A stretch of DNA of 40,725 nucleotides from an uncultured Mycoplasmatota bacterium (GTDB taxonomy: Bacteria > Bacillota_I > Bacilli_A > RF39 > UBA660), in contig CANAXT010000007.1 of NCBI GenBank assembly GCA_947365915.1, forward strand, positions 1 to 40,725, given 5' to 3'. The notes beneath the pieces were generated by a model. That model searched no databases. It was not told the DNA's origin and saw nothing but the letters and a program-made list of their open reading frames with translations. Every line of letters starts with the position of its first letter. The first letter of the stretch is position 1. Position numbers and translations under genes: made by a program. Shown here piece after piece: positions 9,222-40,632 of the stretch.

Positions 9222-9243
9222 AACTGATTTTCAGTTTTTTTTT
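9221..9243 (+). terminator. Rho-independent terminator of the parA-to-transporter operon
   Basis: Perfect 7-bp stem AAACTGA/TCAGTTT with a TTT loop, then a T run that merges into the -35 box of the next promoter. Confidence 0.85.
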
Positions 9244-9270
9244 GACAAATTTTATTTTATCTAGTATAAT
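9242..9270 (+). promoter_or_regulatory. Consensus sigma-A promoter with no obvious downstream gene
   Basis: TTGACA (9242-9247), 17-base spacer, TATAAT (9265-9270), then GTAG. It points at the 3' end of the transposase on the opposite strand. It shares the block ATCTAGTATAATGTAG with the promoter after ftsH. Either it drives a short RNA or antisense transcript, or its former gene was displaced. Confidence 0.75.
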
Positions 9271-9295
9271 GTAGGTTACTACTCAGCTAATCAAG

Positions 9296-10877: not shown

Positions 10878-10969
10878 AAGATTATCACTTCCTTTATTTT
10901 TCATTATAGAAGCATATTTCTTTTTTTTACTCTTTTGAAACTATTTTGTTATATAAATTTTTTTCTCAT

Positions 10970-11017
10970 AACCGAATAGTTACAAAACGACAAAATTAGA
11001 CTAAAAAAAGGTATACT
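10970..11017 (+). promoter_or_regulatory. Promoter and conserved upstream element of the pilin-like gene
   Basis: The block AGTTACAAAACGACAAAAT (10978-10996) is repeated exactly at 40593-40611. CGACAA (10988-10993), an 18-base spacer and TATACT (11012-11017) form a promoter-like unit with the same spacing at both sites. The direct repeat ACAAAA-CG-ACAAAA has an 8-base period, as some response-regulator sites do. The regulator is unknown. Confidence 0.6.
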
Positions 11018-11043: not shown

Positions 11044-12636
11044 ATGAAAGAAAAAAGAGGTTTCACATTAATAGAGCTATTAGCAGTCATAGTAATACTT
11101 GCGGTAATCGCTTTAATCGCAACCCCAATTATATTAAACATCGTAGAAAAATCCAAAAAAAGTGCCTTTCAAGATAGTGCCTATGGACTAATAGAAAGTG
11201 CAAAATTATTATATACAGAAAGTATATTAGATGGAGATGCCAAAGATCAAGTATTTGAGTTTGGAGAAGGGAAAACAAACAACTTAAAATACAGTGGATC
11301 AGCTCCAAAAGGAGGAACCATAGTATTAACCAAAGAAGGAGAAATAGAAGTAGCAATACACAACAATGAATGGTGTGCAGTAAAGGGAAAATCAGAAAGT
11401 AAAATAACATTAAAAAAATATGAATCAGGAAAATGTGAGGTAACAAATAAACCAGATGTATCAGTAGATCCAGAAGAACCAGAAGTAACGAATTCAGATA
11501 ATTCAGGAGCAGAAAAACCAAACTTAAATGGATTAGTACCAATAAAATGGAATGGAACAACATGGATAAAAGCCGATGAAAAAAATGGTGCAGGAGCAAA
11601 TCAATGGTATGATTATAATCAACAGATGTGGGCAAATGCAGCCTCAGTAACAGAAGAATATAGAAACAAAAATGTTGGAGAAGAAATACCAGAGAGTGCA
11701 ATAAATGCATACTTTGTATGGATACCAAGATATGAATATCAGTATACAAATTTAGGAAGTAGTTATGCAGGAGGGTCTCAAGCACAACCAGGTCAGATAA
11801 ATATAAATTTCATAGCAACAAGTAAAACAAGTCCAAGTAGTAATTATAAAATTCATCCAGCGTTTACATTTGGGTCAACACAACTAGCAGGGTTCTGGGT
11901 AGGAAAATTCGAGACAACAGGAAGTGCAGGTACCCCAACAATAAAACCAAACTTAAGTTCATTAAGAAGTCAAAATGTAAGTACACAGTTCACAACAGCG
12001 CAGAAGTTCAGCGCCTCAGGAAACACATATGGAATAAGTACGTCAGCAGATGCGCATATGATGAAGAATAGTGAATGGGGAGCAGTAGCGTATTTAAGTC
12101 AAAGTAAATACGGAAAATATGGAAATAGTAGTTATAGTGGAGCAAATAAGGAAGTATATCAGAATAAATCAGATAGCTATATAACAGGATGTAGTAGTGG
12201 AGCGCCAGGAGCGTCAGGAAGCTATGGTTGCGCATATACATACGAAAAGAGTACAGGAGGAATAGGAGCGAGTACAAGTGGAACAATATACGGAGTATAT
12301 GACATGAGTGGAGGAGCATATGAATACGTAATGGGAGTATATAGTCAGGCAATAGGATCATCAGGATTTGGAAGTTTACCAGCAAGCAAATATTATGATA
12401 ATTATACAACTACCTCAGCAACAACAGCATGTAACTCAGGAATATGTTACGGACATGCACTAAGTGAGACGAGCGGATGGTATTCCGATGCCGCCGACTT
12501 CGTCGATTCGAGTGGCCCGTGGTTTCTCCGTGGCGGGATCTATAACGATACGACGCGTGCAGGAGTGTTTGCTTCAAACACCAGCTTTGGTTCTGCGAAC
12601 TACAATTTCTCGTTCCGGGTGGTAGTGCTCGGTTGA
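11044..12636 (+). CDS. Type IV pilin-like surface protein with a C-terminal C-type-lectin-like domain; probable DGR target
   Basis: 530 residues. The N-terminus KEKRGFTLIELL and its hydrophobic helix form a class III prepilin signal: cleavage after G6, F7 at +1, E11 at +5. A pilin-like region with two cysteines follows, then an acidic proline-rich linker (about 140-165). Next is a long domain with YFVWIPRYEYQ resembling the FGE/SUMF1 C-type-lectin fold, ending PWFLRGG...FRVVV. That ending is typical of the variable region of diversity-generating retroelement targets. From about 12465 the DNA becomes GC-rich with foreign codons (CTC, CGT, CGG, TCG). The start at 11044 follows AAAGGA with good spacing; ATG 11035 is too close. 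Likely exported, anchored as a pseudopilin and used for binding. The ligand is unknown. Confidence 0.82.
   Translation: MKEKRGFTLIELLAVIVILAVIALIATPIILNIVEKSKKSAFQDSAYGLIESAKLLYTESILDGDAKDQVFEFGEGKTNNLKYSGSAPKGGTIVLTKEGEIEVAIHNNEWCAVKGKSESKITLKKYESGKCEVTNKPDVSVDPEEPEVTNSDNSGAEKPNLNGLVPIKWNGTTWIKADEKNGAGANQWYDYNQQMWANAASVTEEYRNKNVGEEIPESAINAYFVWIPRYEYQYTNLGSSYAGGSQAQPGQININFIATSKTSPSSNYKIHPAFTFGSTQLAGFWVGKFETTGSAGTPTIKPNLSSLRSQNVSTQFTTAQKFSASGNTYGISTSADAHMMKNSEWGAVAYLSQSKYGKYGNSSYSGANKEVYQNKSDSYITGCSSGAPGASGSYGCAYTYEKSTGGIGASTSGTIYGVYDMSGGAYEYVMGVYSQAIGSSGFGSLPASKYYDNYTTTSATTACNSGICYGHALSETSGWYSDAADFVDSSGPWFLRGGIYNDTTRAGVFASNTSFGSANYNFSFRVVVLG
12461..12636 (+). other. Putative DGR variable region (VR)
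   Basis: My hand count of 12481-12640 gives about 54% G+C, against 30% for 12121-12180 in the same gene. Codon choice flips from AGA/TTA/CCA to CGT/CGG/CTC/CCG. It encodes PWFLRGG (residues 492-498) through FRVVVLG (524-530), the position and motif of lectin-fold variable regions. Variable residues are probably those between GG and FR. No template repeat or reverse transcriptase is in the window, so the call is inferred from architecture. Confidence 0.65.
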
Positions 12637-12765: not shown

Positions 12766-12867
12766 GGCGATTTATCTAGTAACCATACAGTTACAAGTTT
12801 ATTTTGATATTACAATTACGATATTATCAAAAATGTAATAAATATATATTTTATTAACCCATCCTCC

Positions 12868-24474: not shown

Positions 24475-24489
24475 AAGTGGTTTTTTTTT
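24467..24489 (+). terminator. Terminator of the rsmA-ftsH operon
   Basis: ATCACT/AGTGGT stem (one G-T pair) with AAA loop spanning the ftsH stop codon, then a T run that merges into the next TTGACA. Confidence 0.75.
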
Positions 24490-24515
24490 GACAAACTCAA
24501 ACTATCTAGTATAAT
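24488..24515 (+). promoter_or_regulatory. Consensus promoter after ftsH
   Basis: TTGACA (24488-24493), 16-base spacer, TATAAT (24510-24515), GTAG. Same terminator-fused design and shared ATCTAGTATAATGTAG block as the promoter at 9242. Confidence 0.75.
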
Positions 24516-24520
24516 GTAGC

Positions 24521-40581: not shown

Positions 40582-40584
40582 ATT

Positions 40585-40632
40585 AACCAAATAGTTACAA
40601 AACGACAAAATACGATATAAAAAAGTTATACT
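40585..40632 (+). promoter_or_regulatory. Second copy of the pilin-gene promoter block
   Basis: AACCAAATAG and the 19-base AGTTACAAAACGACAAAAT (40593-40611) match the block before the pilin-like gene. CGACAA (40603-40608), an 18-base spacer and TATACT (40627-40632) repeat the same geometry. No gene begins before the window ends, so the controlled gene lies beyond position 40725. Confidence 0.6.

What the first reader, a model, noticed from the sequence alone, without database searches (positions are those of the whole stretch)
10970..11017. A 19-base promoter block shared by the pilin gene and a site after rplQ
AGTTACAAAACGACAAAAT occurs exactly at 10978-10996 and 40593-40611, both followed 18 bases after CGACAA by TATACT. 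The -35 is non-consensus and the block contains ACAAAA repeated with an 8-base period. Two matches 30 kb apart with conserved geometry point to a dedicated regulator and a family of co-expressed genes, possibly several DGR targets.
Basis: seen in the sequence. Interest (0 to 1): 0.62.

Follow-up and report, generated by a model that had tools for sequence, protein, structure and literature searches.

The report
Shared promoter of switchable pilin genes
The repeated 19-base block is the core of a promoter that an uncultured bacterium places in front of a large family of surface-fibre (type IV pilin) genes, most of which also carry a run of G bases that could flip each gene on or off, so one cell line may show a changing set of fibres.

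Summary
The exact 19-mer occurs at 10978 and 40593 only (0.06 expected), each with TATACT at the stated spacing. Across the genome about 26 copies of a ~60-bp block share a fixed 18-nt gap to TATACT; sequence outside the block is random. Every copy with readable downstream sequence (18 of 18) leads into a type IV prepilin gene or a decayed remnant. The other 8, including 40593, run off contig ends.

The ACAAAA 8-base repeat is not conserved: five sibling sites lack it. Conserved is a palindrome, GTAACY-N4-RGTTAC, ending 28 bp before the -10. Related species keep that geometry but lose the -35. The palindrome occurs twice between a pilin gene and a divergent small XRE regulator gene in all 6 genomes of the genus, so XRE is my candidate regulator (inferred).

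Most of these pilin genes also carry a G9-G11 tract in the leader. All 18 such tracts in the genome are there; 12 of 14 readable genes are out of frame although their ORFs stay open. This suggests poly-G phase variation. One DGR (RT, Avd, MutS-like, four TRs) diversifies several pilin C-termini, including the window gene, but the promoter does not mark DGR targets as such.

The parts
10968..10983 (+). Palindromic operator ATAACCGAATAGTTAC (11 of 12 to GTAACYNNNNRGTTAC)
10978..10996 (+). The 19-mer AGTTACAAAACGACAAAAT: right half of the operator plus the -35 region (ACGACA at 10987-10992, a poor TTGACA; 19-bp spacer)
11012..11017 (+). -10 box TATACT, invariant in the sites compared
11044..12636 (+). 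Type IV prepilin (MKEKR|GFTLIELL...), long C-terminal domain; no poly-G tract in the leader
   Evidence: N_methyl PF07963 9.7e-08, TIGR02532 3.5e-08
12498..12632 (+). DGR variable region (VR); differs from the TR at C30:14207 at 15 of 34 A positions and 9 of 101 others
12779..12794 (+). Perfect operator copy GTAACCATACAGTTAC downstream of the pilin gene, without a recognisable promoter
40583..40598 (+). Palindromic operator TTAACCAAATAGTTAC, second copy
40593..40611 (+). Second exact 19-mer, after rplQ
40627..40632 (+). -10 box TATACT of the second copy; the following ~60 nt match the 5' leader of the pilin-type promoters at C13, C56 and C6 (85-89%); the contig ends before any gene

Best explanation
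The block is the operator plus promoter of a many-gene type IV prepilin regulon. A dimeric regulator, most likely the small XRE-family protein encoded on contig C93 (85 aa, divergent from a pilin gene), binds the palindrome GTAACYNNNNRGTTAC at about -56 to -41 and activates a weak promoter (degenerate -35, 19-bp spacer, TATACT). It probably also controls its own locus, where two operator copies lie just downstream of a consensus promoter. On top of this common control, most member genes carry a G9-G11 tract inside the prepilin leader just before the GFTLIE cleavage site. Slippage of that tract puts each pilin in or out of frame independently, without touching the mature protein. A DGR elsewhere in the genome varies the C-terminal domain of some members. 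Shown by sequence: the block family, its position before prepilin genes, conserved operator/-10 geometry, poly-G tracts and frame states, the XRE-pilin arrangement, adenine-biased VRs. Inferred: that XRE binds the palindrome, that it activates, and that the tracts switch in living cells.
For: Two exact copies, 0.06 expected; 24 genome hits against 2 in control. Twenty-five aligned sites with invariant GTTACA and TATACT and a fixed 18-nt gap. Pairwise identity 0.70-0.79 inside, 0.30 outside. All 18 readable downstream sequences are prepilins or remnants. Palindrome at 11 of 12 or better: 28 hits against 2.4 (max 10) for 60 shuffled palindromes in the same DNA; apart from the blocks they concentrate around the XRE gene on C93. 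Prepilin genes of the related genomes keep [A/G]GTTAC-N28-(-10) (exact in three poly-G genes; G004 and the non-poly-G variants have weaker operators, same spacing) while the CGACAA part is lost. XRE ortholog (74-85% identity) next to and divergent from a pilin gene, with two operator copies between them, in 6 of 6 genomes of the genus; HTH_3 1.7e-12; nearest solved relative is the ICEBs1 Xre regulator, 2.3e-07. Poly-G: all 18 runs of 9 or more G (0.16 expected) are in pilin leaders; 2 ON and 12 OFF of 14 readable genes, with ORFs of 885-1219 aa behind the OFF tracts that are complete in the assembly; tracts recur in G002, G003, G004 and in another genus, G035. Prepilin peptidase present. Window VR adenine bias p = 1.8e-5.
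Against: No expression, binding or read-level data. Most block copies sit before related pilins, so part of the conservation could be recent duplication. The non-block operator hits are few. Eight sites, including 40593, end at contig breaks. Some relatives' promoters have only 8-10 of 12 operator matches. The genome is a 101-contig assembly, so homopolymer lengths are consensus values. TTG-type leaders (C11, C85, C95, C96) could in principle start at the TTG beside the tract. Activation rather than repression rests only on site position.
Confidence: 0.68

Rival explanations
1. The block is simply an ordinary constitutive promoter copied along with duplicated pilin genes; its conservation reflects recent descent or gene conversion, with no dedicated regulator.
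For: Most carriers are close paralogs of one subfamily; gene conversion is common in repeated surface genes (general knowledge).
Against: Leader and upstream flanks of the same copies have diverged to chance; two members of a distant pilin subfamily (window gene, C45:115) carry it; other species keep operator and spacing while the -35 is lost.
Confidence: 0.17
2. The operator is real but is read by another regulator (for example a TetR- or Spo0A-type protein); the XRE gene is beside it by coincidence.
For: CGACAAA resembles half of a Spo0A box (own knowledge, not tested); palindromes of this size are read by many families.
Against: CGACAAA is not conserved in relatives and its C is lost in the TTTT-type sites, while the palindrome is kept, and it is duplicated beside the XRE gene in 6 of 6 genomes.
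Confidence: 0.25
3. A dispersed or mobile repeat (for example part of an insertion element) unrelated to gene starts.
For: An IS66 transposase gene lies just upstream of the first copy, and several copies are near insertion-element ends.
Against: Copies are oriented toward prepilin starts at similar distances and have random flanks.
Confidence: 0.04
4. The poly-G tracts act through transcriptional or ribosomal slippage giving constant low-level expression, rather than heritable on/off switching.
For: Long ORFs are intact behind out-of-frame tracts, which slippage during expression would also explain.
Against: Tract length varies 9-11 among near-identical leaders, which points to DNA-level instability.
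Confidence: 0.15

Closest known systems
Poly-G phase variation of Neisseria pilC and other surface genes
   Same: Homopolymer G tract of 9 or more in the coding region switches a pilus-related surface gene by frame (PMC5953494: pilC G 9-20, genic).
   Different: Here the tract lies in the leader of the pilins themselves, in about 18 paralogs at once, in a Tenericutes-type lineage, most of them under one shared promoter.
DGR-diversified pilus tip proteins of Bacteroides (Macadangdang et al., cited in PMC12632263)
   Same: A DGR varies the tip proteins of pili in a gut bacterium.
   Different: Those are type V pili of Bacteroidota; here type IV prepilins with GFTLIE leaders, dozens of genes carrying the C-terminal domain, four TRs, and poly-G tracts in many of them.
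ICEBs1 Xre regulator / RstR-type small XRE repressors
   Same: Small HTH_3 protein; best solved relative 7t8i, best NCBIfam hit RstR family below cut-off.
   Different: Sits beside a pilin gene rather than in a recognised phage or conjugative element; its operator and binding are untested.

Membership tests
Sigma-70-type promoter | TTGACA-like and TATAAT-like hexamers 16-18 bp apart | tested here: not met
   Standard scan does not list the block at either site: -35 ACGACA, spacer 19, -10 TATACT. TTTT-type siblings have TTGACA with the same 19-bp spacer. It may work as an activator-dependent promoter.
Type IV prepilin | Short leader, G/A before FTLIE, hydrophobic stretch; prepilin peptidase in the genome | tested here: met
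   PF07963 and TIGR02532; PF01478 found once at C14
DGR target (window pilin) | VR differing from a TR mainly at adenines, with a DGR RT and Avd in the genome | tested here: met
   15/34 A against 9/101 other, p 1.8e-5; RT, Avd (bAvd 1.9e-22), MutS_I and 4 TRs on C30
Poly-G phase-variable gene | Tract of 8 or more G in coding sequence whose length sets the frame | tested here: met
   for 14 readable siblings; the window gene itself has no tract
Poly-G phase-variable gene | Tract length changes within a population | not testable with these tools
   No reads available; only 9-11 variation between paralogs
XRE-controlled regulon | XRE protein binds the operator and changes transcription | not testable with these tools
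   Only gene order and operator conservation

The most novel reading that the evidence does not exclude
A three-layer surface-variation system in an uncultured Tenericutes-type lineage: one small XRE regulator opens a whole prepilin regulon, a poly-G tract in each cleaved leader chooses at random which pilins are made, and one multi-template DGR rewrites the binding tips of some of them.
Probability: 0.4. Interest if true: 0.8.

Novelty: new variant of a known kind. Interest (0 to 1): 0.62.

Why it matters
Phase variation by G tracts, and pilus-tip variation by DGRs, are each known; I found no paper in the searched library that joins them on type IV pilins, or that describes poly-G switching in this lineage (the library is open-access only). 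If right, it gives a readable case of combinatorial surface variation whose on/off states can be scored directly from metagenome reads, and a small candidate regulator to test.

Tried and rejected
Two pattern searches had a one-base error in the gap (too noisy, one search found nothing even in the own genome) and are not used as evidence of absence in relatives. An apparent inverted repeat between the end of C27 and the starts of C19 and C51 looked like an invertible promoter; it looks instead like the end of an insertion element shared with C34 and C92. The ACAAAA direct repeat as binding site was rejected because sibling sites lack it. Synteny behind rplQ in five relatives gave no pilin, so the gene after 40593 stays unknown. 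No plasmid match to the block.

Full report
What was checked. The 19-mer AGTTACAAAACGACAAAAT is exact at 10978-10996 and 40593-40611, with no third copy within 3 mismatches (0.06 expected), and TATACT follows CGACAA after exactly 18 bases at both. The shared stretch is about 76 bp at 78% identity.

Genome-wide family. The window is contig C7 of a 1.55 Mb, 101-contig genome. The 19-mer has 24 hits with up to 3 mismatches, against 2 for the control. Reading them, 21 have TATACT at the same place; one (C58) keeps the block without it and leads into a pilin remnant; L022 lies in a coding sequence and L023 lacks the -10, and I count both as unrelated or decayed. Five more sites of the form GTTACATTTTGACAA were found upstream of pilin genes, making about 26 complete sites. 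Downstream: 14 lead to a poly-G prepilin leader (C5, C8, C11, C14, C34, C37, C44, C45, C60, C74, C83, C85, C95, C96; on C8 the leader is broken and a second-type pilin follows; on C74 and C83 the contig ends at or just after the tract), 2 to a prepilin without the tract (window gene, C45:115), 2 to a decayed remnant of the pilin C-terminus (C21, C39), and 8 run off a contig end (C6, C7:40593, C13, C27, C48, C56, C89, C97). So all 18 readable cases are pilin-related.

Shape of the block. In 25 aligned sites GTTACA, GACAA and TATACT are invariant or nearly so. Mean pairwise identity is 0.70-0.79 inside and 0.30-0.32 more than 30 bp upstream or more than 90 bp downstream. The left end is a palindrome, GTAACYNNNNRGTTAC; at 11 of 12 or better there are 28 hits in 363 kb of fetched DNA, against a mean of 2.4 and a maximum of 10 for 60 shuffled palindromes. 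Because most of those 28 are the homologous blocks, the independent support is the group of four on contig C93, three of them around the XRE gene, and the relatives.

Relatives. Five genomes of the same genus (public records of close relatives are titled uncultured Tenericutes MAGs) carry relatives of the pilin. Their poly-G pilins have AGTTAC or GGTTAC followed by exactly 28 nt and a -10 (G002 C12, G003 C36, G005 C89, whose tract is interrupted; G004 C20 with a weaker operator), although the CGACAA part is gone; the non-poly-G pilins of G001, G002 and G005 keep the 28-nt spacing with a variant operator. This is what an activator site fixed relative to the -10 would look like (inference).

Candidate regulator. 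On C93 an 85-aa XRE protein (HTH_3) is divergent from a pilin of the same subfamily. The intergenic region holds a consensus promoter TTGACA-N17-TATAAT, then GTAACCATTCGGTTTC and GTAACTAAATGGTTAC. The arrangement, with operators, recurs in all five relatives. Binding, and activation at the blocks against repression at its own locus, are inferences from position.

Poly-G tracts. The genome has 18 runs of 9 or more G (0.16 expected) and all are in prepilin leaders with the common core ACAAATAGTAA. Frame test: 12 of 14 readable genes are OFF and 2 (C60, C73) ON, not significantly different from one in three (p 0.11). Behind the OFF tracts the ORFs stay open; those complete in the assembly are 885-1219 aa long, which is not what pseudogenes look like. 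The tract is in the part that prepilin peptidase (present) should remove. Poly-G leaders recur in G002, G003, G004 and in another genus, G035.

DGR. Contig C30 carries RT, Avd and a MutS domain I protein with four template repeats. The DGR-type C-terminal domain is found in dozens of places. The window VR has 15 of 34 A changed against 9 of 101 others (p 1.8e-5); C30's own VR 16 of 35 against 1 of 100. Many other VRs are too far from the present TRs to show a clear adenine bias, so the number of active targets is probably smaller than the number of genes. A second pilin subfamily with the same C-terminus has another promoter with its own palindrome, TAGTCTATAATAGACTA. The block therefore marks one prepilin regulon, not DGR targets as such.

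Limits. No reads, expression or binding data; a fragmented assembly with many breaks at exactly these genes; literature search limited to open-access papers.

Noticed in passing
L246, L247, L255, L256, L257, L259, L260 (other genera of the family): Runs of 9-16 G lie between TTGACA-like and TATAAT-like hexamers, suggesting promoter-spacer phase variation is widespread in this family.
   Followed up: partly
contigs C1, C2, C8, C14, C31, C47, C90 (L095, L091, L087, L116, L115, L093, L108): The second pilin subfamily (MKKKGFTL) shares a different promoter with palindrome TAGTCTATAATAGACTA, perhaps a second regulon.
   Followed up: no
ends of C6, C13, C48, C56, C97 (L263-L267): Five block sites run into a nearly identical sequence with a short hairpin (CTAACTATTAAAAGTCAATAGTT) at the same leader position; possibly an insertion element with a fixed target.
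   Followed up: partly
window 9236-9274 and 24481-24519: Another shared promoter-like block, TTTTTTTTGACAAA...CTAGTATAATGTAG, also found upstream of second-subfamily pilins.
   Followed up: no
L053 and L083 (contig C30): One DGR with four template repeats in two pairs about 10 kb apart, RT, Avd and a MutS domain I protein.
   Followed up: partly
5' leaders of C14, C21, C34, C44, C45 (L055, L071, L061, L067, L058): The pilin leaders hold a GTTTC...GAAAC-type inverted repeat just before the ribosome binding site.
   Followed up: no
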